From Haloactinopolyspora alba (GTDB lineage Bacteria; Actinomycetota; Actinomycetes; Jiangellales; Jiangellaceae), in NCBI RefSeq assembly GCF_003014555.1, contig NZ_PYGE01000008.1:62001-126000 (forward strand): a stretch of DNA of 64,000 bases, written 5' to 3'. Every line of letters begins with the position of its first letter. The first letter of the stretch is position 1. Below the pieces are notes generated by a model. The model was not told the DNA's origin. It saw only the letters and a program-made list of their open reading frames with translations, and made no database searches. Below, piece by piece: positions 2,523 through 14,027 of this stretch. The position numbers and the translations under genes are program-made.

Positions 2523-3752
2523 ATGACCGGGGGGCACGAGCCGACGCTTGACCAGCTGGCCGGCGACGCCGCCGTGGTCCGGCTCTACCGTCAGGTGTTC
2601 GCGGTGCTGGCCCGCGAGTCCGGCGCGATGATCGCCGATGTCGATCTTCTCGACGTCGACGAGGCCATTCTGGACGCGTTCGCCGACGCCGGGCGCGATG
2701 GCCTCACGGTGGAGCAGGCCGTCGCCGCGTGCAGGCCGTTCGATCCGCAGCTCGTGGGCCGGCGGTTCGAGGTCCTGCGCGAGTACGGCGCCATCAGCAA
2801 GGTGGTCGACCGGCCCAACGAACGATTCCACCGGGCCGCGTTCGCGCCCTACGTCATGCTGCTGTTCCTGCGCCGGATGGCCGAGCGGGGCGGCCAGGCC
2901 GAGCTGCACCAGCTGCTGACCCTCGAACACGTGAACGTCCAGGCCACCGACGCCACGGCGGCGGTCGGGCGGACCTCGGTCAACAGGCTGACCAGAATCT
3001 TCCGTCACCTCGGCAACGAGCTGGCGATCCTGGCCGCCGGCAGCACCGCCGAGCAGCTGGGCGAGCACGCGCAGCTGCTCTGGGGCAACAAGTCGCTCAT
3101 CACGCAGGCCGAGGAGGTACACGCGGTCGTCCTCGACCGATGGCCGGAGCTGGACGGCGAGTGCGCCACGCTGCGCATCGCCCTGGCCGCCTACGGCGAC
3201 GCCGTCGAGTCGGCCGCGGGCCGGCTGATCGAACAGGCCGGGACGACCCGCGCGCTGGGCCTGTTGCCGGTGGAGTCGTGGCTGTCGTTCGCCCGCGGCT
3301 CCAGCACCGAGTCGCTGGCCGCGGTCCTGGACGGGTTCGTCTTCGACGCCCCCGCCCCCTGGTTCTCGCCGCATCAGCTGACCGAGGCCGTCGAGGACGG
3401 CCGGCACACCGGTCCGGTCCGCCAGCCACCGCCGCGGCCGGAGTCCGCCACCGCGGAGCCCGACCCGCAGCCGGTTCCCGCCGACGACCGCGAGCAGCTG
3501 CACGATCTCGCCGAGCGGCTGCTGGCCGACGCCCGGTCGGTCACCGTCACCGGCGTTCTGGACGGCACCGACGACTGGATGGCCGGACGCCGGATGCTCG
3601 CCGACCTGACCGCGATCCACCACCACCCGGACCTGCCGTACGCGCTGGCCTGGTCCGACGGCCTCCGGGTCGACGATGCCGGCAGCCCGTCGTGGGTGTC
3701 CGCCGGCACGTTCACCCGGGTGTCCGAGGACGAGGACGAGGACGAGCGATGA
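2523..3752 (+). CDS. Putative kleisin-like subunit of an SMC-like operon (MukF/JetA position)
   Basis: A 409-residue, largely helical protein. Residues 1-110 look like a winged helix (AAVVRLYRQVFAVLARESGA; GLTVEQAVAACRPFDPQLVG; RRFEVLREYGAISKV), residues 130-290 are helix-rich, then a proline-rich linker and a very acidic tail (SEDEDEDER). I do not recognise a named family with certainty; the role is inferred from being first in a four-gene overlapping operon with an SMC-like ATPase, as MukF/JetA is. It lacks recognisable DUF3375 features. The ATG at 2523 is preferred over the ATG at 2415, which would place the coding region across the upstream palindrome. Its stop overlaps the next start (ATGA). 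Confidence 0.65.
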   Translation: MTGGHEPTLDQLAGDAAVVRLYRQVFAVLARESGAMIADVDLLDVDEAILDAFADAGRDGLTVEQAVAACRPFDPQLVGRRFEVLREYGAISKVVDRPNERFHRAAFAPYVMLLFLRRMAERGGQAELHQLLTLEHVNVQATDATAAVGRTSVNRLTRIFRHLGNELAILAAGSTAEQLGEHAQLLWGNKSLITQAEEVHAVVLDRWPELDGECATLRIALAAYGDAVESAAGRLIEQAGTTRALGLLPVESWLSFARGSSTESLAAVLDGFVFDAPAPWFSPHQLTEAVEDGRHTGPVRQPPPRPESATAEPDPQPVPADDREQLHDLAERLLADARSVTVTGVLDGTDDWMAGRRMLADLTAIHHHPDLPYALAWSDGLRVDDAGSPSWVSAGTFTRVSEDEDEDER

Positions 3753-4258
3753 GCGACGACGACGCGTTGTGGTGGGCCAAGGTCCGCTCCGGCGGTCCGC
3801 AGCGGGTCACGCCGGACAGCGCCTATCCCGCGGGGATGACCCGGCTGGTCGAACCGGACGCCCGCGCGGTGTGGCTGCTGCCGGACCTGCCGGACAACGC
3901 CCGCCCGGACGTCCTGGAGGAGCTGGGCCTGTCCGGCTTCCCGGTCGACCAGCGCGGCGACACCGCGCGTGTGCTCGCGTCCTGCCTACGCTGCTGCTGG
4001 TCCGAACCGTCCGGTCCGATCTGGCCGGGCACGAGCGCGTCCCTCGACGACGTCGCGGCCTCGTTCCGCGCCATCACCGACACCCGCGACGACCGCGCCC
4101 GGCACGCCGCGCTGCTCGGCGCCGTGCGCAGGCTGGCGGCCTCGGGATGGGTGGGCTTCGACGAGGAACAGCGCACCGTCCGGCTCGGCCCGAGGGTCGC
4201 GGCCTGGAACGCCGCCGAACTGAGCACGCTGCGTGAGCTCTGGCGGTCGATGCCGTGA
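3749..4258 (+). CDS. Small winged-helix-like protein of the SMC-like operon
   Basis: A 169-residue protein starting at the ATGA overlap with the previous gene and ending in a GTGA overlap with the next. The N-terminal 75 residues have no recognisable fold (MSDDDALWWAKVRSGGPQRV); residues 95-165 (LDDVAASFRAITDTRDDRAR, ALLGAVRRLAASGWVGFDEE, QRTVRLGPRVAAWNAAEL) read as a winged helix with a beta wing, as in MukE or ScpB subunits. Strict translational coupling with its neighbours suggests a subunit made in fixed ratio with the ATPase. Function is otherwise unknown. Its presence as a fourth subunit is unlike the three-subunit MukBEF layout. Confidence 0.65.
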   Translation: MSDDDALWWAKVRSGGPQRVTPDSAYPAGMTRLVEPDARAVWLLPDLPDNARPDVLEELGLSGFPVDQRGDTARVLASCLRCCWSEPSGPIWPGTSASLDDVAASFRAITDTRDDRARHAALLGAVRRLAASGWVGFDEEQRTVRLGPRVAAWNAAELSTLRELWRSMP

Positions 4259-4938
4259 CCGCGACCACCGACGGACAGCACCCCGTCTTCGGCCCGGTGC
4301 TGTCCGAGCTGAACGAGCGGCATCGTGACGAGGTGCTCACCGCGTTCGCCGCGGTCGAGCACGGCCGCGACCCGGTGCCGGAGGCCCAGCTGGCGGCGCT
4401 GCGCGACGCCACGCTCCGCCGGCACCTGCGCCGGCTGCTCGACCGGGTCGGGCGGACACTGGTGCAGGTCGGCAACGGACACTGGACGTCGGGTTACGCG
4501 GACGACGTCGCGGCACGGCTGTCCGCCGAGGGCTGGCAGCCGCTGCCGGCGATCGACCGTGCGGTCCTGGTGCTCGTGCTCGTCCATTCGGTGGCGATCC
4601 CGCGCAGCCAGGGGCTGCTCAGCGGCGACTCGTGGACGTCGGCGCACCCGACCTCCGCCGACGAGCTGGTGAGATACGCCCAGCTGCCGCGCGGCGAGAT
4701 CCGTCCGGCGCTGCAGCGCCTCCGCGCGGCGGGCCTGGTGCAGTCCGCGCCGTGGCGCGGACGCGGGCCCGACACCGGCACCGCGTACCTGCCCGGGCCG
4801 GCGCTGAACCGGTTGACGCCGTCGGCCCGCCAGCGGCTCGAGCACCAGCTGATCCTCGCCGCGGCCCCGGAGAGTCCGCTGGCCGCGTCGATCCGGGCCA
4901 AGCAGGCGGCCTCGGAACACACGGATGGAGACCGATGA
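4255..4938 (+). CDS. Winged-helix protein of the SMC-like operon (MukE/JetB position)
   Basis: A 227-residue protein beginning with GTG in a 4-base overlap with the preceding stop. Two winged-helix-like segments can be seen, around residues 50-85 (ATLRRHLRRLLDRVGRTLVQ then VGNGHWTSGYADDVAARL) and 130-185 (TSADELVRYAQLPRGEIRPA, LQRLRAAGLVQSAPWRGRGP). The position directly before the SMC-like ATPase and the size match MukE/MksE/JetB (about 220 residues), the accessory winged-helix subunit that binds the kleisin. That assignment rests on context; sequence similarity to DUF4194 cannot be judged here. The stop overlaps the ATPase start (ATGA). Confidence 0.65.
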   Translation: MTATTDGQHPVFGPVLSELNERHRDEVLTAFAAVEHGRDPVPEAQLAALRDATLRRHLRRLLDRVGRTLVQVGNGHWTSGYADDVAARLSAEGWQPLPAIDRAVLVLVLVHSVAIPRSQGLLSGDSWTSAHPTSADELVRYAQLPRGEIRPALQRLRAAGLVQSAPWRGRGPDTGTAYLPGPALNRLTPSARQRLEHQLILAAAPESPLAASIRAKQAASEHTDGDR

Positions 4939-7900
4939 GCACAGCACGATCGGCCGCCGCCGGCACCACCGGCCCGTTCGACGTCGTGGGCGACCGGGTC
5001 CTGGTCGGCGTGCAGGTGGTGGACATCTCACGGCTGTCCACGCACCCGGTACCGGTGACCACGCAGGGCCTGGTGACCGTCGCGGGCCAAGGTCCGAAGG
5101 ACTCCAACGGGGCGGGCAAGTCGTCGTTCATCGCCGCGCTCAGCCTGCTGCACGCCGACGAACAGTGGCGCCTGGCCAGCGGCGCCTCCGGTGCGGCCGA
5201 GCTGCTGTTCACCGCCGAGCTCGCCGCGCAGGAGAGCCGGTGGTCCAACGTCGACCGCGGGTACCTGATCGGCGTGTTCGCGATGCCGGGCGCGACGAGC
5301 GCCGAGGAGCTCGCCGACGACACGGTCACGGTGTGGCTGCGGATCAACCGCAAGGCGCCCTACATCGATCTGCGCTGGCACGACGGTCTGTACGTTCCGT
5401 ACGGCGAGTCCGAGAGCGACCGCGCGGGCCGCGCCGACGAGATGTGGCGCTCGCTGCCCCGCAGCAACGGGCGCACCGACTTCCACGCGAACCAGCTGTC
5501 CAAGGTGCTGTTCGGTCAGCACGCACGGTGCGTGTCGTTCCTGTCCACCTCGGTCCGGTCCAGCCCGACCGCGAACCTGCTGGCCCAGCCGCTGAACGAC
5601 CTCGCCCCGCAACGCATCTTCGACGCGATCGCCACGCTGACCGGCCTGGACCGTGAGCTCGACCACGAGCAGGTGCTGCGCTCCGCCGAGCACCGCCACC
5701 GTACGACCGTGCTCGACGCCGAGAAGGACCTCGCGGACTGGGAACGCGACATGGCCGTCGTCGAGGCCGGCATCGCGCGCCGGATCAAGGCCCGCGAGCT
5801 GCTCGACGAGGCCCGGCAGGCGTGGCGCTCACGGTGCGCACGGCACCTGCTCGACGGTGTCGAGCAGGCCCATCACCTGCGCTCGCGGCTGAACACGCTG
5901 AGTGAGTCGATCGACGAGATCCGTGCCGAGATCCAGGGCGTCGACGACCAGCTGGCCGCGCTCAGCGACGACGACGGTGCCGTGCGCCGTTTCGACGCCG
6001 CCCGCAAGGCCCGCCAGGAGCTGCTGGGCCGCGACCGCGAGCTCGACGCGGGCCACCAGGCGGCCACGCAGAACCTGGAACGCCTCACCACCCGGCTGCG
6101 CGAGCTGACCGACGCGGCGCGGACCACCGACGGCCGCGACGTCGAGACCGCCCGCGCCGAGGAGGCCGAGGCGAAAACCGCCCTGGAGGAGGCGATCGCC
6201 GCGCACGGCGTGGCCAAGGCCGCCGAGGCGCAGGCACGGACCGGCATCGCCGCCGCCGAGGCCGGTGACGACGTCGCCACGGAGCAGCGCGAGCGCCTGC
6301 GCGAGGCCGGTGTGCCCGCGGCCGCGCTCGTGGACGTGGTCGAGGTGGCGCCGGACGAGCGCGACAGCTGGGAGCCGCGGCTGACGCCGTACCGCCACGC
6401 GGTGGTCGTCGCCCGTGCCGACGCCGAGCGCGCCCGTGCCGCCCTGGCCGACCTGCCCGGTTCCGTCGTCGTGATGGCCGAGCCCGCGGGGGACGAGCCG
6501 GCCGCGGACGACGCCGCGACGGCCGACGGCGCGACGGAGACCCCCGCGACGTTCGACCTGTCGGCGTTCCTGGCCGCGGTCGCCCAGCGCTCGGGCGAGC
6601 AGGCGGTGGTCGACGGTGAGGCGGGGGTACTCGTCGTCGGCGGGTTCACCGAACCGATCACCGGGCGCGCGAGCCGGGTCGCCGCCGCCGAATCGGAGCA
6701 CCGCGCACGCGTCGCCGCCGTCGAGGACGCGCGCGCCGCCCTGGACACCGCTCGTGCCGCTCTGGACACGGCCGAGTCGCGAACCCGCGCCGCCCGGGCC
6801 GCCGAGGAGGCCGACGCCGTCCGGTCCGAGATCGCCGAGCTGCGCGAGGCCAACGAACAGCGCCAGGCGCGCCGAGACGAGCTCGCGCCGAAGCTCGCCG
6901 AGGCGGAGGACGTCTACGCCCGCGAACTGGGCGTGCGCGACTCCCGCGACGAGCGCATCGCGGGCCTGCGCCAGACCCGCAAGCGCCTCGAGCACACGCT
7001 CTCCGAGCGCGAGGCCGAGATGTTCCGGCTCACCGAGGAGCGCGACGCGATCGGCCTGCTGGACCGCGAGAAGGCCTGGGGCGACACGCCGGAGGCGGCC
7101 GAACAGCATCTGAGCGAGCTGGGCGACGAGCAGAGCCGCACCACGGCGGAGTGGGACGAGTACGCCTGCCGGCTCACGAACGAGGTCGCCGTCGGGTGCT
7201 TCCCGCCGAGCACGCCGAACGACGAGATGACCGCCGAGCTGCGCGAGCTGCTGGTCACGCAGAACTGGCACGGCGGCAGCCTCGAGACCCGGGTCGGCCT
7301 CGTACAGCCGCTGCAGCGGGCGCTGCGCGCCCACCTCGACGACACCGAGGAGCACGACCAGCACCAGCGGCAGCAGATCACCGAGCAGCGCACCCGCCGC
7401 AGCAACGACCTCTCCGCCGCCCGGCTCGGCCTGGCTGAGGCCGAGCAGACCGCCCGGGCGCACCGTACGTCGCTGGCGTCGGGCATCAAGGCGATGCTCA
7501 CGAAGGTGGGCGCCGAGTTCGACCGGCTCGACCAGGAGTACGGCGGGTACGGTGCGGGCCTGGACTTTCCCGAGCCGGAGCCGCCGGCCGAGCCGGACAA
7601 GCCGTGGCGCTGGACGGTCACGCCGAAGTGGCGGCGTGCCGAGGGCCAGCGGATGTCGGCGTACACGCTGCGCAGCAACACCGCGCAGATGGACGAGAAG
7701 GCGGTGAAGCTGGTCTGCGCGGCGGCCCTCGCCCGCGGCGGCGACCGCCCGCTGCTGCTGATCCTGGACGAGCTCGGACGCAACCTGGGCAAGCAGCACC
7801 GCCGGGAGGCGGTCGCGCTGTTCGAGCGCATCGGCAACGACCACAACATCACCGTCGTCGGGGCGCTGCAGGACGACATGGAGCGCTACGCCATCGAGGC

Positions 7901-8060
7901 GTCCGGCCTGTACGTCAAGCTGCGCCGCCGGTCGGACACCATGGCCTACAACGAGGAGCCGGTGATCGTCGGCGACGACGCCAACCGCGCCCGGGTGCAG
8001 CTGCTGCGCGACTGGCTGACGTCCTACCGCCCGGGCGACGTGGCACAGTTGGGTGGGTGA
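4935..8060 (+). CDS. SMC/MukB/JetC-like coiled-coil ATPase
   Basis: A 1041-residue protein with the SMC head-coil-hinge-coil-head plan. Walker A is GPKDSNGAGKSS with the lysine at residue 62; Walker B is LLLILDELGRNLG with D945/E946. Long Glu/Ala/Arg-rich coiled coils fill about residues 210-450 and 590-850. A small globule at about 450-590 (including DSWEPRLTPYRHAVVVARAD) would be the hinge. The ABC signature LSGGQ is not apparent; the corresponding region reads AYTLRSNTAQMDEKAVKL. Such ATPases bind and extrude DNA loops with kleisin partners, here presumably the three genes before it. It is slightly shorter than typical JetC/MksB (about 1100) and much shorter than MukB. No JetD/topoisomerase-VI-A-like gene lies on either side. 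Confidence 0.82.
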   Translation: MSTARSAAAGTTGPFDVVGDRVLVGVQVVDISRLSTHPVPVTTQGLVTVAGQGPKDSNGAGKSSFIAALSLLHADEQWRLASGASGAAELLFTAELAAQESRWSNVDRGYLIGVFAMPGATSAEELADDTVTVWLRINRKAPYIDLRWHDGLYVPYGESESDRAGRADEMWRSLPRSNGRTDFHANQLSKVLFGQHARCVSFLSTSVRSSPTANLLAQPLNDLAPQRIFDAIATLTGLDRELDHEQVLRSAEHRHRTTVLDAEKDLADWERDMAVVEAGIARRIKARELLDEARQAWRSRCARHLLDGVEQAHHLRSRLNTLSESIDEIRAEIQGVDDQLAALSDDDGAVRRFDAARKARQELLGRDRELDAGHQAATQNLERLTTRLRELTDAARTTDGRDVETARAEEAEAKTALEEAIAAHGVAKAAEAQARTGIAAAEAGDDVATEQRERLREAGVPAAALVDVVEVAPDERDSWEPRLTPYRHAVVVARADAERARAALADLPGSVVVMAEPAGDEPAADDAATADGATETPATFDLSAFLAAVAQRSGEQAVVDGEAGVLVVGGFTEPITGRASRVAAAESEHRARVAAVEDARAALDTARAALDTAESRTRAARAAEEADAVRSEIAELREANEQRQARRDELAPKLAEAEDVYARELGVRDSRDERIAGLRQTRKRLEHTLSEREAEMFRLTEERDAIGLLDREKAWGDTPEAAEQHLSELGDEQSRTTAEWDEYACRLTNEVAVGCFPPSTPNDEMTAELRELLVTQNWHGGSLETRVGLVQPLQRALRAHLDDTEEHDQHQRQQITEQRTRRSNDLSAARLGLAEAEQTARAHRTSLASGIKAMLTKVGAEFDRLDQEYGGYGAGLDFPEPEPPAEPDKPWRWTVTPKWRRAEGQRMSAYTLRSNTAQMDEKAVKLVCAAALARGGDRPLLLILDELGRNLGKQHRREAVALFERIGNDHNITVVGALQDDMERYAIEASGLYVKLRRRSDTMAYNEEPVIVGDDANRARVQLLRDWLTSYRPGDVAQLGG

Positions 8061-8485
8061 GACACGTCAACGACCCCGACACCATCCGCCGGCTGCTGAC
8101 CACCCGGGCCACCTGGGCGGTCGTGGGACTGTCCGGCAACCGGACTCGCACCGCCTACGGCGTCTCGCAGTACGTCCGCGACGGCCTCGGCATGCGTGTC
8201 GTGCCGGTCAATCCCCGTGGCGAGGACGCGCTGGGGCTCACCGGCTACACCGACCTGGCGCAGGTGCCCGCTCCGGTCGACGTGGTGGACTGCTTCGTCA
8301 ACAGTGAGCGCGTCGGCGCGGTGGTGGACGATGCCATCGCCGAGCGTGACCGGCTGGGCATCGGCGCGGTGTGGCTGCAGCTCGGTGTCATCGACGACGA
8401 CGCCGCCGACCGTGCCCGCGCTGCCGGGCTCGACGTCGTCATGGACACCTGTCCCGCCATGGAGGGCCCGCGCCTCGGCCTGTGA
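8057..8485 (+). CDS. CoA-binding domain protein (YccU-like)
   Basis: A 142-residue single-domain Rossmann protein of the CoA-binding family: RATWAVVGLSGNRTRTAYGV near the start, GMRVVPVNPRG in the middle, and GIGAVWLQLGVIDDDAADRA plus MDTCPAMEG at the end, all hallmarks of the succinyl-CoA-synthetase-like CoA-binding fold. Family members bind CoA or acyl-CoA, but their function is mostly unknown. It starts at a GTG that overlaps the stop of the SMC-like ATPase (GTGA), so it is co-translated with that operon. Whether it works with the ATPase or is merely an operon passenger cannot be told. Confidence 0.85.
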   Translation: MRHVNDPDTIRRLLTTRATWAVVGLSGNRTRTAYGVSQYVRDGLGMRVVPVNPRGEDALGLTGYTDLAQVPAPVDVVDCFVNSERVGAVVDDAIAERDRLGIGAVWLQLGVIDDDAADRARAAGLDVVMDTCPAMEGPRLGL

Positions 8486-8516
8486 CGTCCCGGACGGCTC
8501 CTCAGCGGTGCCGTCC

Positions 8517-9311
8517 TCATGCGTCCAGCGGCGTCGCCTGCTGCCACAGCACCTCGAACGCCAGCTTCAGCGTCGCCGCCAGCGCCTCGTGGTACACGAC
8601 GACGGTGGTCGCGGCGCCGGCGCCGTCCACGGCGTGCGGCATGTTGAACCCGACCGAGCGACCGTCCACCAGGGTCAGTTTCAGCGGCAGCTCGTCGGCC
8701 ACCCGCACCTGCTCGCCACGGTCCGCGTACGCACGGACGACGGCGGCCATCACCGCGTCGTCGAACAGCGACCGTTCGTAGATCGCGCGCTGCACGACGC
8801 CCTCGACCACGCGGACGTCCTCCGGTTCCGGCGGCGCCAGGTACGGCGGACGCACCAGCGACAGGATCTCCGTCCGCGCCTCGGACCACAGCTGTTCGAT
8901 CCGTTCCACCGCGTGCTCGCGATCGCGCAGCACCTCGACGTGGTCGCTGCGGTCGTCGCCGCCCTGCGCCGCGCGATGCCGCGCCAGCAGCTCGTCCACG
9001 ACGTCGTCGGTGCGCTGTGTCAGCCGGTCCAGCTCCCGGCGGCGCACCGCCAGCAGAAGCTGCGCCACCCGGTCCGGCGGCTGCGCCCGGTAACGCACGC
9101 CGCTGCCGGGCACCTGGACGACGACGCCGCGCTCGGCCAGTGAGGCCAGCACGTCGTAGGCGCGCTGGCGCGGGATGGACGCGATGCGGGCGACGTCCGC
9201 GGGCGTCGCCTCCTGCCGCCCGATCAGCGCCACGTAGGCGCCCGCCTCGTACCGGGTCAGCCCCAGGTCGACGAGACCGGAGAGCTGGGATGTGATATCC
9301 ACATTCATCAC
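8517..9311 (-). CDS. TrmB-family transcriptional regulator
   Basis: A 264-residue protein: N-terminal TrmB winged helix (residues about 10-75: LGLTRYEAGAYVALIGRQEA, TPADVARIASIPRQRAYDVL, ASLAERGVVVQVPGSGVRYR), a short helical linker, and a C-terminal effector-like domain (ARTEILSLVRPPYLAPPEPE; VRVADELPLKLTLVDGRSVG). TrmB proteins in archaea sense sugars; in actinobacteria their ligands are mostly unknown. The start at 9311 (ATGATG) lies just downstream of a strong palindrome that is probably its own operator. It is transcribed away from the S8 peptidase gene and could also regulate that. Confidence 0.85.
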   Translation of the reverse strand: MMNVDITSQLSGLVDLGLTRYEAGAYVALIGRQEATPADVARIASIPRQRAYDVLASLAERGVVVQVPGSGVRYRAQPPDRVAQLLLAVRRRELDRLTQRTDDVVDELLARHRAAQGGDDRSDHVEVLRDREHAVERIEQLWSEARTEILSLVRPPYLAPPEPEDVRVVEGVVQRAIYERSLFDDAVMAAVVRAYADRGEQVRVADELPLKLTLVDGRSVGFNMPHAVDGAGAATTVVVYHEALAATLKLAFEVLWQQATPLDA

Positions 9312-9314
9312 CCT

Positions 9315-9340
9315 ACTGTCACCATTGACAGTGGTGACAG
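9315..9340. promoter_or_regulatory. Probable TrmB operator
   Basis: ACTGTCA (9315-9321), four bases, TGACAGT (9326-9332): a perfect 7-bp inverted repeat. A third half-site GGTGACAG follows at 9333-9340, pairing with CTGTCACC at 9316-9323. It sits directly upstream of the TrmB-like regulator gene and in the shared intergenic region with the S8 peptidase. Confidence 0.55.
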
Positions 9341-9428
9341 CTTCGTCTAGGTTCGCCGGATACCCGGAGCGGCAGCTTGACTCGTCTGTTCGGGAACACC
9401 GACCAGGTCAGTCACGAGGAGGCGCGTG

Positions 9429-9581
9429 ATGTGTCTGCCGTCGCTCCGGCTCGGGCACATGATCACCAGTCCCCGGTCGTTCCCGCATCCCGCCGTACCG
9501 GCACCGGAGCCGATCGCACCGCGACCAGCGGCGAGCCGACCCCAGCTCGACCACCTCGACGTCCAGTGGGTCGTTCAGTAA
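9429..9581 (+). CDS. Possible 50-aa ORF upstream of the S8 peptidase
   Basis: ATG at 9429 (or GTG at 9426) is preceded by GAGGAGG at a workable distance and opens a 50-codon frame starting MCLPSLRLGHMITSPRSF and ending DVQWVVQ. Its TAA is part of TAAGGAG, which serves as the ribosome binding site of the peptidase ten bases later, so translation of the two could be coupled. No signal peptide or known family; the proline-rich composition is what random high-GC sequence can give, so it may be a leader peptide or not coding at all. Confidence 0.35.
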   Translation: MCLPSLRLGHMITSPRSFPHPAVPAPEPIAPRPAASRPQLDHLDVQWVVQ

Positions 9582-9590
9582 GGAGTCACG

Positions 9591-12500
9591 ATGTTGCGCC
9601 GTTCCCTGACGTTCTCCGCCGTGGCGGCACTCACCCTGGGGCTGGCCCAGGGTGCCGCCGCGGCGCCGCCGGATCCACCGTTCCCGGACACCCCCACCGA
9701 GGTCACCGACGTCGTCGAACGACAGCTCGACAAGGGACCGGTCATGGCGCTGGGCAGCGCCACCGAACGGCCCGAGCTCTATCTGGTGCGCCTGAAGGAA
9801 CCGGCGGTCCCCAGTTACGACGGCGGCATCGACGGGATACCGGCCACGGCGCCCGAGGCCAGGGGAACCCAGCGGCTGGACGCCGACGCGGATGCGCCGC
9901 GGCAGTACCGCGAGCACCTCCGGCAGGAACAGGCCGAGCTGGTCACGGCCATCGGCGACGAGACCGGACGCAGCCCGGACGTCCGGCACACCTACACCGA
10001 CGCCATGAACGGCATCGCCGTCGAACTGACCCGCGACGAGGCGCGCGCGGTCGCCGAGCTCCCCGGCGTCGCCGCCGTCCAGGTGGACGAACAGCGTGAG
10101 CTGCAGACCGACCACGGCCCGGACTGGATCGGCGCGCCCGCCCTGTGGGACGGGTCCGGCACACCCGGCGGAACCAGCGCCACCAAGGGCGAGGGCGTCG
10201 TGGTCGGCGTCCTCGACAGCGGCATCAACCCCGCCAACCCGTCGTTCGCCGACTCGGTGCCCGAAGCCGAAGGCGGCGACGGCTACGACCACACCAACCC
10301 GCTGGGCTCCGGCACGTACGTCGGTGTCTGCGACCCGGCGAACACCGACATCCACGTGCCCGACTTCGGCTGCAACGACAAGCTGATCGGCGCCTGGAGC
10401 TTCACCAGCGGCGAGCCGGGCAGTCCCTACGACGACAACGGCCACGGCTCGCACACCGCCAGCACCAGCGCCGGCAACCAGGTCGAGGCGACCACGTACA
10501 GCGCCCGCGGCACCGAGCACGAGTTCAGCGCCACCCGCACCATCTCCGGTGTCGCGCCGCACGCCAACCTGATCGCCTACGACGTGTGCACCACCGACGG
10601 CTGCTCGATCGCGGGCATCGTCGCGGCCATCGACCAGGCGATCGCCGACGGCGTCGACGTCATCAACTACTCCATCGGCAGCTCCTCGCCGTCGGCGGCG
10701 TGGACCGACCCGGACGCCGTCGGTTTCCTGAACGCCCGTGCCGCCGGCGTCCACGTCGCCACGTCCGCCGGTAACGACGGGCCGGGCGCGAACACCGTCG
10801 GCTCGCCGGCGGACGTCCCCTGGGTCACGTCGGTCGGCGCCGCCCAGCACGACCGGCAGTGGCAGGCCGAGATCAACGGCATCGCCGCCGACGGCGGCGA
10901 GACGCTTCCGGCCATCCGCGGCCTCGGCTTCAGCGCACCGACCGGGGGTGCGTTCGACCTCATCTACGCCGGTGACCTCGGCAGCCCGCTGTGCAAGGCC
11001 GACGGACTGGCCGGCCAGGACCTCACCGGGAAGATCGTCGTCTGCGACCGTGGCGAGATCGCCCGGGTCGCCAAGGGTGGCAACCTCGCCGCGCTGGGAG
11101 CCGAGGGCATGGTCCTGGCGAACGACGAGGCCAACGGCAGCTCACTGAACGCCGACGCGCACGAGCTGCCCGCCGTGCACATCACGCACGCGGACGGCGT
11201 CGCGTTGAAGGAGTGGATGGCCGGCGTCACCGGTGAGCAGGCCGCGCTGTCCGGCGGCATCGAGGTGATCTCGGACGAGCTCGGCGACGTCATGGCGGGC
11301 TTCTCCAGCCGCGGCCCGAACAACGCGCTCGACATCGTCTCCCCCAGCGTGACCGCGCCGGGCGTGGACATCCTCGCCGCCGGCGGCGCCGGCAACGAGG
11401 TCGCGTGGGAGTTCATCTCCGGCACGTCGATGGCCAGCCCGCACGTCGCAGGATCGTTCGCCCTGCTCAAAGGGGTGCACGGGGACGCGTGGAGCCCGGC
11501 CGAGGCGCAGTCCGCGCTGATGACCACCGCGCACACCGACGTCACCGACATCGACGGCACCGCCGCCGACTGGCACGACATGGGCTCCGGCCGCGTCGAC
11601 CTGAACGTCGCGGCACGCGCGGGCCTGGTCATGGACGAGACCTACGCCGACTACGTCGCCGCCGACCCGGCCCAGGGCGGCGACGTCAAGACCCTGAACC
11701 TGCCCAGCATGGCGAACAGCCAGTGCCTGCAGACCTGCACGTTCACCCGCACCGTGACGGGCACCGCGACCGGCGCCGGCACGTGGGCCGCCAGCGCCGA
11801 GTCGACCACCGACGGCGTCACCGTCTCCGTCGAGCCTTCGACGTTCACCATCGCCGAGGGCGAGGACGTCGAACTGACCGTCACCGTCGACGTCACCGGC
11901 GCCGCGACCGAGGACTACCAGTACGCCACCGTGGTGCTGACCCCGCCGGACGGGTCGGCCGCGCCGCCGGCGCATCTGCCGGTCGCCGTGCTGCCGTCCA
12001 CCGGGGTGCTCCCGGGCGAGATCTCGGTGGACACCCGCCGGGACGCGGGCTCGCAGGAGTCCGCGCCGATCGAGGCCATCGAGATCACCGATCTGACGAC
12101 GAGTGTCGCGGGCCTGGTGCCGGCGGCCGAGGACGAGGTGTCGGTGCCTGAGGACTCCACCAACGACGACCCCTACGACGGCAACGGCACCCACACGACG
12201 CTGATCGAGGTGCCGGCGGACGGCGCACGGCTGATCGCGTCGCTGTCGGATGCCACCGCGCCGGACATGGACCTGTTCGTGGGCACCGGCAGCGAGCCGA
12301 GCGCCGCGACCGAGGTCTGCTCCAGCACCAGCTCGACGGCCGACGAGTTCTGTGACATCACCGACCCGGAGGCCGGGACCTGGTGGGTCGTGGCGCAGAA
12401 CTGGGAGGCGTCCGCCGCCGGCGGCACCGACACGGTCACGCTCGGCACCGCCGTCGTCGGCGGCGACGCGGGCAACATGACCGTCGACGGGCCGCAGCAG

Positions 12501-14027
12501 CAGCCCATCGGCGAGCCGTTCACCATCCGCACCAGCTACGACGAGCCGGCCATGGAGGCCGGCCAGACCTGGTACGGCGCCGTCACCCTGGGCTCGAGCC
12601 CGGACTCACCGGGCGACATCGGCACGCTGCCGGTCACGGTGCACCGGCACGCCGACGACGTCACGAAGACCGCGTCCGTGGACACCGCTGCGCCGGGCGA
12701 GACCGTGACGTACACGCTCACGGTGCGACCCAACGTCACCCCGCGGGACCTGAGCTACACGATCAGCGACACCCTCCCCGAGGGCATGACCTACGTCGAG
12801 GGCTCGGCGACCGGCGGAGCGACCGTCACCGACGGCGTGCTCGAGTGGGAGGGCACCATGCCGACACCGGTCGGCGCCCCGGGCAGCTACGACATCACCA
12901 CCAGCGCCGACGACGAGACCTGCGTCAACCCGTTCACCGGGACCGCCGGATACACGAACCTGGAGGAGTTCGGCATCCCGGCGAACGCGGGCATCAGCGG
13001 TGACGGCGTCGCCTACACCGCGTTCGCCGGTACCGGGTTCGGCTTCCACGGCGACCTGTACGACGGCCTCGGCTTCACCGACGACGGCTTCCTCTCGTAC
13101 GACGTCGCCGCGAACTACGGCGGGCAGCCCGGCACACCGCAGTCGCTGCCCGATCCGGCACGGCCGAACAACGTCGCCGCCATGCTCTGGCAGGACATGC
13201 GCATCGACCACGACGCCGACGCCAACACCGGTGTCTCGCTGGCCACCGCCGGCGACCTGGCGATCGTCGAGTACGACGACGTCCGGCTCGCCGACGACCC
13301 GGACGGCACCCAGGGCACCTACGACGTCGAGGCGTTCGCCGTAGCGGGCAGCAGCGACCTGGTGTTCGCCTACGACAACGTCACCGGTCCGCTTTCCGGC
13401 CCGCTGACCGTCGGCACCGAGAACGCCGACGGCACCGCCGGCACCGCGCTGGTCGACAACGGCAGCGCCGAGGGTGTCATCACCGACGGGACCGTCGTGT
13501 GCGCCGACTACGCCGGCCCGGACCTCGAGCCGGTGCGGATCAGCTACGACGTCACCGTGGACGACGACGTCGCCGACGGCCGGGTGCTCACCAACGAGGC
13601 CGTGCACGTCACCGACAACCCCGGCGCGCAACCGGTCACGGCCGCGGCCGACGTCACGGTCGACACACCGGCGGTGACGGTCTCGGCCACGCAGGACGCC
13701 GTGGAGCCGGACACCGACGGCGTGGTCACCTTCACCCGGCCGGCCGGCGCCGCCGGAGGCGAGCTCACGGTGTCGTACTCGGTCACCGACAGCCGCTACA
13801 CCCGGCCCGGGCGCGACTACGAGCCGCTGGACGGCGAGGTGACCTTCCCCGCCGGCGAGACCACGGTCACCGAGACCGTCGGGGTGATCGACCGCCGTGG
13901 ACCGAGCCCACGGGAGCGCTCCGTCGAGATCACCGTCGATCCGGGCTCCGGATACCAGGTCGGCGACCCGGCGACCGCGTCGATCGGCATCGTCAGCGAC
14001 GGCCGCGCCGGACGAGGCGGCCGCTGA
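9591..14027 (+). CDS. Secreted S8 (subtilisin-like) serine peptidase with PA and C-terminal beta domains
   Basis: A 1478-residue exported protease. A Sec signal peptide (cleavage after about AQGAAAA) precedes an I9-type propeptide, then the catalytic domain with D209 (VVGVLDSGI), H285 (NGHGSHTAS) and S613 (GTSMASPHVAG). A PA domain is inserted before the serine (GKIVVCDRGEIARVAKGG). After the protease come a PPC-like segment, a DUF11-like repeat (TVTYTLTVRPNVTPRDLSY) and a terminal Calx-beta-like domain (ETTVTETVGVIDRRGPSP). No sortase signal or membrane anchor closes the protein, so it is likely released. AAGGAG lies 7 bases before the ATG. Substrate unknown; such enzymes usually digest external protein. 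Confidence 0.93.
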   Translation: MLRRSLTFSAVAALTLGLAQGAAAAPPDPPFPDTPTEVTDVVERQLDKGPVMALGSATERPELYLVRLKEPAVPSYDGGIDGIPATAPEARGTQRLDADADAPRQYREHLRQEQAELVTAIGDETGRSPDVRHTYTDAMNGIAVELTRDEARAVAELPGVAAVQVDEQRELQTDHGPDWIGAPALWDGSGTPGGTSATKGEGVVVGVLDSGINPANPSFADSVPEAEGGDGYDHTNPLGSGTYVGVCDPANTDIHVPDFGCNDKLIGAWSFTSGEPGSPYDDNGHGSHTASTSAGNQVEATTYSARGTEHEFSATRTISGVAPHANLIAYDVCTTDGCSIAGIVAAIDQAIADGVDVINYSIGSSSPSAAWTDPDAVGFLNARAAGVHVATSAGNDGPGANTVGSPADVPWVTSVGAAQHDRQWQAEINGIAADGGETLPAIRGLGFSAPTGGAFDLIYAGDLGSPLCKADGLAGQDLTGKIVVCDRGEIARVAKGGNLAALGAEGMVLANDEANGSSLNADAHELPAVHITHADGVALKEWMAGVTGEQAALSGGIEVISDELGDVMAGFSSRGPNNALDIVSPSVTAPGVDILAAGGAGNEVAWEFISGTSMASPHVAGSFALLKGVHGDAWSPAEAQSALMTTAHTDVTDIDGTAADWHDMGSGRVDLNVAARAGLVMDETYADYVAADPAQGGDVKTLNLPSMANSQCLQTCTFTRTVTGTATGAGTWAASAESTTDGVTVSVEPSTFTIAEGEDVELTVTVDVTGAATEDYQYATVVLTPPDGSAAPPAHLPVAVLPSTGVLPGEISVDTRRDAGSQESAPIEAIEITDLTTSVAGLVPAAEDEVSVPEDSTNDDPYDGNGTHTTLIEVPADGARLIASLSDATAPDMDLFVGTGSEPSAATEVCSSTSSTADEFCDITDPEAGTWWVVAQNWEASAAGGTDTVTLGTAVVGGDAGNMTVDGPQQQPIGEPFTIRTSYDEPAMEAGQTWYGAVTLGSSPDSPGDIGTLPVTVHRHADDVTKTASVDTAAPGETVTYTLTVRPNVTPRDLSYTISDTLPEGMTYVEGSATGGATVTDGVLEWEGTMPTPVGAPGSYDITTSADDETCVNPFTGTAGYTNLEEFGIPANAGISGDGVAYTAFAGTGFGFHGDLYDGLGFTDDGFLSYDVAANYGGQPGTPQSLPDPARPNNVAAMLWQDMRIDHDADANTGVSLATAGDLAIVEYDDVRLADDPDGTQGTYDVEAFAVAGSSDLVFAYDNVTGPLSGPLTVGTENADGTAGTALVDNGSAEGVITDGTVVCADYAGPDLEPVRISYDVTVDDDVADGRVLTNEAVHVTDNPGAQPVTAAADVTVDTPAVTVSATQDAVEPDTDGVVTFTRPAGAAGGELTVSYSVTDSRYTRPGRDYEPLDGEVTFPAGETTVTETVGVIDRRGPSPRERSVEITVDPGSGYQVGDPATASIGIVSDGRAGRGGR

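What the first reader, a model, noticed from the sequence alone, without database searches (positions are those of the whole stretch)
2523..8060. Four-gene SMC-like operon resembling MukBEF/Wadjet but without a JetD nuclease
Seen: four strictly overlapping cistrons (ATGA, GTGA, ATGA), the last a 1041-residue SMC/MukB-like ATPase with Walker A (K62), coiled coils, hinge-like globule and Walker B (D945/E946); the three others are a helical 409-residue protein with an acidic tail and two winged-helix proteins. Known: MukBEF and Wadjet/MksBEFG pair a similar ATPase with kleisin and winged-helix subunits, and Wadjet adds JetD, a topoisomerase VI A-like nuclease. Inference: this is a related but distinct condensin-like complex with an extra small subunit and no nuclease, either a chromosome organiser or a defence system using another effector.
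Basis: partly seen in the sequence, partly recalled or inferred. Interest (0 to 1): 0.8.

Follow-up and report, generated by a model that had tools for sequence, protein, structure and literature searches.

The report
Effector-free Wadjet-like SMC complex
Four overlapping genes encode what looks like a new kind of ring-shaped DNA-organising machine; some of its relatives carry an interchangeable DNA-cutting or protein-kinase weapon, but in this bacterium and its kin no weapon was found and the machine is kept as a core gene set.

Summary
In detail: four coupled cistrons at 2523-8060 (409, 169, 227, 1041 aa), the last with Walker A K62 and Walker B D945/E946. No product reaches a curated cut-off in Pfam or NCBIfam; PADLOC matches are weak. 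Predicted folds make A a MukF/JetA-type kleisin (low-confidence model) and C a KITE. B is an extra subunit, fused to C in one clade. The SMC has N-T-A-(Q/E/L) where JetC has S-G-G-Q. The SMC gene is in 14 of 14 genomes of the window's genus and genus g4 and 38 of 38 of the Kribbella genus, nearly always single copy; no effector was found beside it in the loci fetched there. Yet 12 of 66 operon loci held carry a linked effector: JetD-like TOPRIM protein (7) or Ser/Thr kinase with a sixth gene (5); clade I cases of both kinds share an N-terminal adaptor. So this is a new type beside the Mks/Wadjet group with an exchangeable effector, here effector-free. Likely role in the window: accessory chromosome organiser (inferred).

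The parts
2523..3752 (+). A: kleisin (MukF/JetA type), 409 aa: N-terminal winged helix about 40-105, helical region, low-confidence stretch 265-320, C-terminal winged-helix-like domain about 323-399
   Evidence: AF2 model (pLDDT 61.8); Foldseek rank 1 MukBEF entry 9gm7_C E 1e-4, rank 2 JetA 8q72_E E 2.3e-4 (8q72_E named JetA)
3749..4258 (+). B: extra subunit, 169 aa, C-terminal half read as winged-helix-like (inference); fused in frame to C in 10 of 14 loci of the Streptosporangiaceae-type clade
   Evidence: alignment; fusions; no family match
4255..4938 (+). C: KITE subunit, 227 aa, tandem winged helices (GTG start)
   Evidence: AF2 pLDDT 84.7 pTM 0.71; Foldseek top hits ScpB/ScpAB entries, then MukEF, JetB, Nse1-Nse3-Nse4 entries; VIA 3w6j_C Z 9.5 rmsd 5.1 over 140, 7dg2_C Z 9.2 rmsd 5.3 over 173
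4935..8060 (+). D: SMC ATPase, 1041 aa; Walker A K62, variant ABC signature NTAQ 915-918, Walker B D945/E946; coiled arms and hinge-like middle (the last by reading)
   Evidence: coiled-coil matches

Best explanation
The operon encodes an SMC motor complex: D is the SMC ATPase, A the kleisin that bridges the heads, C the KITE that binds the kleisin, and B an extra subunit that probably docks on C. It is a type without library models, near the Mks/Wadjet group. In effector-bearing relatives the fifth gene supplies either a JetD-like TOPRIM protein or a Ser/Thr kinase with a sixth-gene partner, in clade I on a shared N-terminal adaptor: the SMC part would sense foreign or closed DNA and the effector act. 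In the window's lineage no effector was found, and the four-gene core is kept under purifying selection as a core feature beside canonical Smc. I infer that there it works as an accessory DNA-loop-forming chromosome organiser, as argued for MksBEF of Pseudomonas aeruginosa after presumed loss of JetD (PMC10586767, passages). Shown by tool results: gene order, conservation, effector presence and non-detection, TOPRIM and kinase domains. Supported by predicted structures: kleisin and KITE folds. Inferred: complex formation, loop extrusion, effector activation, chromosome role.
For: Kleisin and KITE folds; ATPase residues kept in 47-48 of 49 rows; SMC in 14 of 14 genomes of genera g1 (the window's) and g4, all single copy, and in 38 of 38 genomes of the Kribbella genus, 37 single copy; position 0.16-0.18 genome lengths from dnaA in 4 of 4 g4 genomes and 0.32-0.35 in 10 of 11 Kribbella; dN/dS 0.05-0.26 for all four genes in 8 pairs of loci; canonical Smc above cut-off in 6 of 6 genomes tested, the window's included; no JetD_C in own genome; no adaptor in own, the 8 other g1/g4-type and the 5 Kribbella genomes tested; no adaptor-TOPRIM in 14 of 14 g1/g4 holders nor 5 of 5 Kribbella tested. 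Linked effectors in relatives. One clade of effector-free rows rejected, p-AU 0.0085.
Against: No direct evidence of chromosome binding. Profile comparison with JetA/JetB/JetC found beside JetD_C is weak: D vs JetC 35%, A vs JetA 0.4%, C vs JetB 0.2%; by domain, head N 39%, head C 19.5%, hinge 0.4%. The model of A is low confidence (pLDDT 61.8) and in the VIA list its MukF match is tied with a designed protein. The NTA signature might mean altered or weak head engagement. Direction of effector gain or loss is not resolved. An unlinked effector too divergent for the searches is not excluded: PF09983 scores even the linked TOPRIM proteins poorly (23.0 bits in L007, below cut-off in others), and Kineosporia has its adaptor-TOPRIM gene on another contig than its operon.
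Confidence: 0.58

Rival explanations
1. It is still an immune system: the effector-free complex restricts plasmids or phages by entrapping and silencing their DNA, or recruits an effector encoded elsewhere.
For: Some relatives couple it to TOPRIM or kinase effectors; Kineosporia carries the adaptor-TOPRIM gene on another contig than its operon.
Against: SMC gene in 52 of 52 genomes of two lineages, one copy in 51, conserved position where tested, unlike patchy defence genes; in the order of G394 the family is patchy (15 of 296, some weak or partial). No adaptor in own, Jiangella-type or Kribbella genomes tested, no adaptor-TOPRIM.
Confidence: 0.27
2. It is a DNA-repair or recombination ATPase complex of the SbcC/RecN kind, not a loop-extruding condensin.
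For: The library matches of D are to SMC-, Rad50-, SbcC-type and other coiled-coil proteins.
Against: Kleisin and KITE partners mark SMC-kleisin-KITE complexes and not SbcC or RecN (established knowledge); most of those matches fall in the arms.
Confidence: 0.08
3. It is a decaying remnant of a defence system in the window lineage.
For: No effector found; in relatives L122 and L151 transposase-type genes split the SMC gene.
Against: Genes open and under purifying selection in the Jiangella and Kribbella pairs tested, ATPase residues kept, SMC in every genome of the two lineages.
Confidence: 0.03

Closest known systems
MksBEF / MukBEF (nuclease-free members of the Mks/Wadjet group)
   Same: Kleisin, KITE, SMC in one operon with the SMC last; no nuclease at the locus; MukBEF/MukEF entries are among the nearest solved folds.
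   Different: Extra gene B between kleisin and KITE; NTA signature; no model-level sequence match.
Wadjet / JetABCD / MksBEFG / EptABCD
   Same: Kleisin-KITE-SMC core; JetA and JetB among the Foldseek hits; some relatives carry a linked TOPRIM protein with JetD_C above cut-off (L131 48.9 bits, L007 23.0 bits).
   Different: Window genome has no JetD_C match; the fifth gene of relatives has its own N-terminal domain and can carry a kinase instead; JetA and JetB profiles do not match.
Smc-ScpAB
   Same: KITE fold closest to ScpB by Foldseek.
   Different: Kleisin is MukF/JetA-like, and canonical Smc is encoded separately in the same genome.
Lamassu / ABC-3C, and MADS (mad6, mad8 models)
   Same: Exchangeable effectors around an SMC-like ATPase (Lamassu: PMC10586767, passages); L150 SMC matches LmuB 1e-9, kinase effectors match mad6 (4e-34 in L149) and PD-T4-6, L149 SMC matches mad8 2e-5.
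   Different: Kleisin and KITE present here; the window SMC barely matches (LmuB E 0.13, mad8 E 0.025).

Membership tests
Mks/Wadjet group (MukBEF-like) | SMC ATPase with N-terminal Walker A, C-terminal Walker B, coiled arms | tested here: met
   arms from coiled-coil matches
Mks/Wadjet group (MukBEF-like) | Kleisin of MukF/JetA type | tested here: met
   Foldseek ranks 1-2 MukBEF entry and JetA, on a low-confidence model; VIA tied with a design; profile test negative
Mks/Wadjet group (MukBEF-like) | KITE subunit with tandem winged helices | tested here: met
   profile vs JetB negative
Mks/Wadjet group (MukBEF-like) | Canonical ABC signature S-(G/T)-G-(E/Q) | tested here: not met
   NTAQ at 915-918; N in 48, T in 47, A in 48 of 49 rows. 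JetC motif; MukB motif recalled
Mks/Wadjet group (MukBEF-like) | Consecutive kleisin-KITE-SMC genes (criterion of the PMC7617805 catalogue) | tested here: not met
   gene B lies between kleisin and KITE; it is fused to the KITE in one clade
Wadjet (JetABCD) | Linked JetD nuclease | tested here: not met
   no JetD_C in the window genome; met in some relatives
Wadjet JetABC of kin genomes | Sequence match to JetA/JetB/JetC | tested here: not met
   hhalign 0.4, 0.2, 35%
Wadjet types II and III | Sequence match to their PADLOC models | tested here: not met
   only JetC3 E 0.0044, 12.9 bits, residues 596-832
Smc-ScpAB | Smc equivalog (TIGR02168, cut-off 567 bits) | tested here: not met
   14.6 bits
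Lamassu | LmuB with LmuA effector, no kleisin or KITE (as recalled) | tested here: not met
   kleisin and KITE present; LmuB E 0.13
DNA loop extruder | ATP-driven loop extrusion | not testable with these tools
   needs single-molecule assay

The most novel reading that the evidence does not exclude
A distinct SMC-kleisin-KITE type with an extra subunit and a variant ABC signature, whose motor module is combined with an exchangeable effector (TOPRIM protein or kinase plus partner), and which has more than once come to exist as a domesticated, effector-free, vertically inherited second condensin in actinobacteria: a natural series showing how a DNA-sensing immune SMC and a chromosome organiser turn into each other.
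Probability: 0.55. Interest if true: 0.87.

Novelty: new variant of a known kind. Interest (0 to 1): 0.74.

Why it matters
[quoted passage not shown] That some Wadjet-group members lack the nuclease is already known (PMC7617805, passages). New here is one family whose relatives exist with a TOPRIM nuclease-like protein, with a kinase, and with neither, the last fixed in whole genera beside ordinary Smc, so the question becomes testable by deletion and swapping. A protein kinase linked to a kleisin-type SMC complex would imply a signalling output rather than DNA cutting; I found no report of one in the open library (searches; several of those lists were capped).

Tried and rejected
Rejected: 'a known Wadjet type' (no model match). 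'JetD linked in the window': the next genes are a CoA-binding protein, a TrmB-like regulator and a subtilisin-like protease (names by my reading), conserved neighbours in Jiangella loci but set apart from the operon by insertions in several. 'Homologous hinge to JetC': the pairing looked good by eye and lay inside the whole-protein alignment, but the hinge alone gives 0.4% probability, so I do not claim it. VIA for A could not separate MukF from a designed protein. The kinase gene 124 and 157 nt downstream of the SMC in L095 and L096 lacks the adaptor and matches only the kinase domain (30%), so it was not counted as an effector. Viral contigs gave no relative. One paper search returned nothing, one nothing relevant on MADS. 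PMC7617805 (passages and section 52 seen) catalogues Wadjet operons with a check for MksG; its method asks for consecutive MksB, MksF and MksE hits and MksF of 400 aa or more, so this type may have been missed, but its Data S1 could not be read.

Caveats on counts: the trees used 21 of the 39 loci (the rest are near-duplicate Kribbella, L026 with frameshifts and the fragment L036), and not L099 and L104; one search used 47 and 29 of the 49 SMC rows made. In both trees Kineosporia L011 counts as effector-free although its genome has the TOPRIM gene elsewhere. L098 shows no Walker A only because my script chose a late start. The 52 of 52 figure counts the SMC gene; A-B-C order and the lack of a linked effector were checked only in fetched loci: 22 Kribbella-type loci (at least 1.1 kb downstream of D), L132 and L133, and for g1/g4 the loci. 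Gene calls in relatives are my script's, not annotations.
Full report
OBSERVATION. Motifs K62 and D945/E946 are present. A scan of one-genome-per-species contigs returned 39 loci encoding a relative of D. In 38 of the 39 all four genes lie in the order A-B-C-D; L036 is a contig fragment with only part of D, and L026 shows frameshifts. In L022 and L029 about 2 kb lies between C and D. Coupling: nearest in-frame starts give 4-nt overlap at A-B in 30 of 37, 4 or 8 nt at B-C in 37 of 37, 4 nt at C-D in 27 of 37 (L026 and L036 left out).

FAMILY TESTS. No product of the window reaches a curated cut-off in Pfam or NCBIfam, and PADLOC matches are weak (best for D: PbeC 0.0017, JetC3 0.0044). PHROGs gave weak matches for A (0.0023) and C (0.022) and an SbcC-like match for D at residues 590-699 (4e-7). 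Sequence and profile searches of the PDB found no convincing relative. Profile-profile comparison with Wadjet proteins found next to JetD_C in five kin genomes (their JetA and JetB profiles find solved JetA and JetB chains) was weak: D-JetC 35%, A-JetA 0.4%, C-JetB 0.2%, B-JetB 0.2%, B-C 0.4%; by domain, head N 39%, head C 19.5%, hinge 0.4%.

STRUCTURE. AF2 of A (27 rows, pLDDT 61.8, pTM 0.36) shows a winged helix, a helical region, a low-confidence stretch and a C-terminal winged-helix-like domain. Foldseek over the PDB gives only two hits at E <= 0.001: 9gm7_C of a MukBEF entry (1e-4; MukF by its length, recalled) and 8q72_E (2.3e-4), which is JetA; chains of MukBEF or MukF entries also fill ranks 3-6 and 8-10, with an unrelated methyltransferase at rank 7. 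VIA was inconclusive (MukF 1t98_A Z 10.2, rmsd 6.9, 192 aligned, tied with a designed protein). AF2 of C (27 rows, pLDDT 84.7, pTM 0.71) gives six hits at E <= 0.001, all from ScpB or ScpAB entries, with a MukE-MukF entry chain at rank 10, JetB (8as8_C, named) at 13 and an Nse1-Nse3-Nse4 chain at 21, among ordinary winged-helix proteins; VIA 3w6j_C Z 9.5 over 140 and 7dg2_C Z 9.2 over 173 residues, with MarR-type proteins at Z 9.0 and below mostly over about half that length. So C is a KITE and A a kleisin, the latter with lower certainty. B and D were not modelled.

SMC PECULIARITY. Where JetC has SGGQ, this family has NTA(Q/E/L), NGAQ in L131: N in 48, T in 47, A in 48 of 49 rows. Walker A K is kept in 48 and Walker B D and E in 47 of 49 rows; the two Walker B gaps are the transposase-split genes L122 and L151, and the Walker A exception L098 reflects my choice of start.

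EXTRA SUBUNIT. In the Streptosporangiaceae-type clade (L054, L095-L107) B and C lie in one frame without a stop in 9 of 14 loci, and L101 makes 10, since its one stop falls at the end of C and one search shows one 391-aa frame; 3 are unfused (L095-L097) and L099 is truncated. This suggests that B and C touch each other (inference).

EFFECTORS IN RELATIVES. In L007, L008 and L033 a fifth gene overlaps the SMC stop by 4 nt and ends in a TOPRIM domain; in L009 and L025 the same N-terminal domain (75% and 85% identical to L007's) is joined to a Ser/Thr kinase, followed by a sixth gene. Further TOPRIM cases: L123 and L124, L150, and L131, a second, divergent copy in a Kribbella-genus genome. Domain scores: above a curated cut-off in L007 (JetD_C 23.0), L033 (DUF2399 24.0), L123 (DUF2399 26.3), L124 (DUF2399 29.3), L131 (JetD_C 48.9); below it in L008 (DUF2399 20.9) and L150 (Toprim 18.1, JetD_C 15.7; PADLOC JetD1 2.2e-7). 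Kinase cases: L009, L025, L122, L149, L148 (Pkinase scanned in L009, L025, L149; the others by similarity; in L148 kinase and sixth gene lie upstream on the other strand). The sixth gene accompanies 5 of 5 kinase and 0 of 7 TOPRIM cases. The TOPRIM residues E288 and D335/D337 (L007 numbering) are invariant in the 6 aligned proteins. In all, 12 of 66 operon loci (39; L054; L095-L107; L122-L124; L131; L143-L151) carry a detected effector in the tblastn survey of all loci held (with L131's TOPRIM part). In the order of G394 the adaptor matched 7 of 298 genomes, 4 strongly (E <= 5e-22), and all 4 lie next to the SMC. Kineosporia has an adaptor-TOPRIM gene with no operon gene within its 16-kb stretch. 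The adaptor profile was built from clade I; in clade II only L131 matches it (40%), and the N-terminal regions of L148-L150 are not shown to be the same domain.

EFFECTOR-FREE LINEAGES. The SMC is found in 14 of 22 genomes of the order: 14 of 14 in genera g1 (the window's) and g4, 0 of 8 in the others; in 38 of 38 genomes of the genus of G400, the genome of L012, a Kribbella by its record title, with a second copy in one; in 29 of 393 genomes of the class, two of these as short fragments; and in 15 of 296 of the order of G394, some weak or partial. The adaptor-TOPRIM protein is absent from 14 of 14 g1/g4 holders and 5 of 5 Kribbella tested; over the 38 genomes of that search it matched 5: Kineosporia in full, three kinase-type genomes through the adaptor, and one short fragment. 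JetD_C occurs in 5 of 22 genomes of the order, two of which (G006, G011) also hold our operon elsewhere. The operon lies 0.16-0.18 genome lengths from dnaA in 4 of 4 g4 genomes and 0.32-0.35 in 10 of 11 Kribbella, the exception being G720 at 0.43, whose second copy lies at 0.18 (most genome sizes rounded). dN/dS is 0.05-0.26 for every gene in 8 pairs of Jiangella or Kribbella loci. A canonical Smc above cut-off is present in 6 of 6 genomes tested, the window's included.

TREE. On 47 SMC rows (quick IQ-TREE) effector-free rows need 4 changes, 3 forced by starred branches, and kinase rows need 2; the window's clade is sister to the effector-bearing L007/L008/L009/L025/L122 set with SH-aLRT 90, below the star level. 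On a thinned clade I set of 29 rows that sister relation is left open, 2 changes are needed, and one clade of effector-free rows is rejected (p-AU 0.0085). Long branches (L131, L150, L151, L146) are present, and the direction of change, gain or loss, is not settled.

MECHANISM. Shown: gene content, order, conservation, effector domains. Supported by predicted folds: kleisin and KITE. Inferred: D dimerises by its hinge, A bridges the heads, B and C bind A, ATP drives loop formation; in effector-bearing relatives the effector is engaged when the motor stalls on a small or foreign DNA; in the window lineage the motor alone remains and structures the chromosome, as has been argued for MksBEF (PMC10586767, passages).

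NOVELTY. Searches of the open library (some lists capped) showed no paper on this family; PMC10123090 (passages) and PMC7617805 (passages and section 52) describe the canonical group, the latter noting that several Wadjet-group members lack the nuclease. Because the ABC signature, the consecutive gene order and the linked nuclease tests are not met, I do not file it as MukBEF or Wadjet; it works like them, by inference, and is best called a new type beside them.

Noticed in passing
L122:8859-9641; L151:6928-7785: Transposase-type genes (by reading) split the SMC gene in an effector-bearing and a divergent copy.
   Followed up: partly
L022:7054-8980, L029:6918-8974: About 2 kb, with an ORF on the other strand that looks secreted, separates C and D in two Kribbella-type loci.
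   Followed up: no
L095:6268-8049, L096:6389-8125: A Ser/Thr kinase gene without the adaptor lies 124 and 157 nt downstream of the SMC in genus g104; possibly a third effector arrangement.
   Followed up: partly
L153:5041-8844, L154:4837-7317: Streptomyces plasmids carry kinases related (46-48%) to the effector kinase, one inside a protein annotated as a dsDNA nuclease domain protein beside a second such gene: perhaps a portable kinase module.
   Followed up: no
L007:13509-17255: A 1248-aa helicase-like protein follows the TOPRIM gene in Amycolatopsis palatopharyngis; possible defence island.
   Followed up: no
L108:6388-7110: Remnant: a C-terminal SMC piece followed by a TOPRIM piece in genome G136.
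   Followed up: no
L016: Record titled Streptomyces sp. SID13031 groups with Kribbella in the SMC tree; probably misnamed.
   Followed up: no
L054 (NZ_LT559118.1): An 11.85-Mb Nonomuraea replicon listed as a plasmid is probably the chromosome.
   Followed up: no
window 8057-14027: CoA-binding protein, TrmB-like regulator and subtilisin-like protease (names by reading) downstream are conserved neighbours in Jiangella loci.
   Followed up: partly
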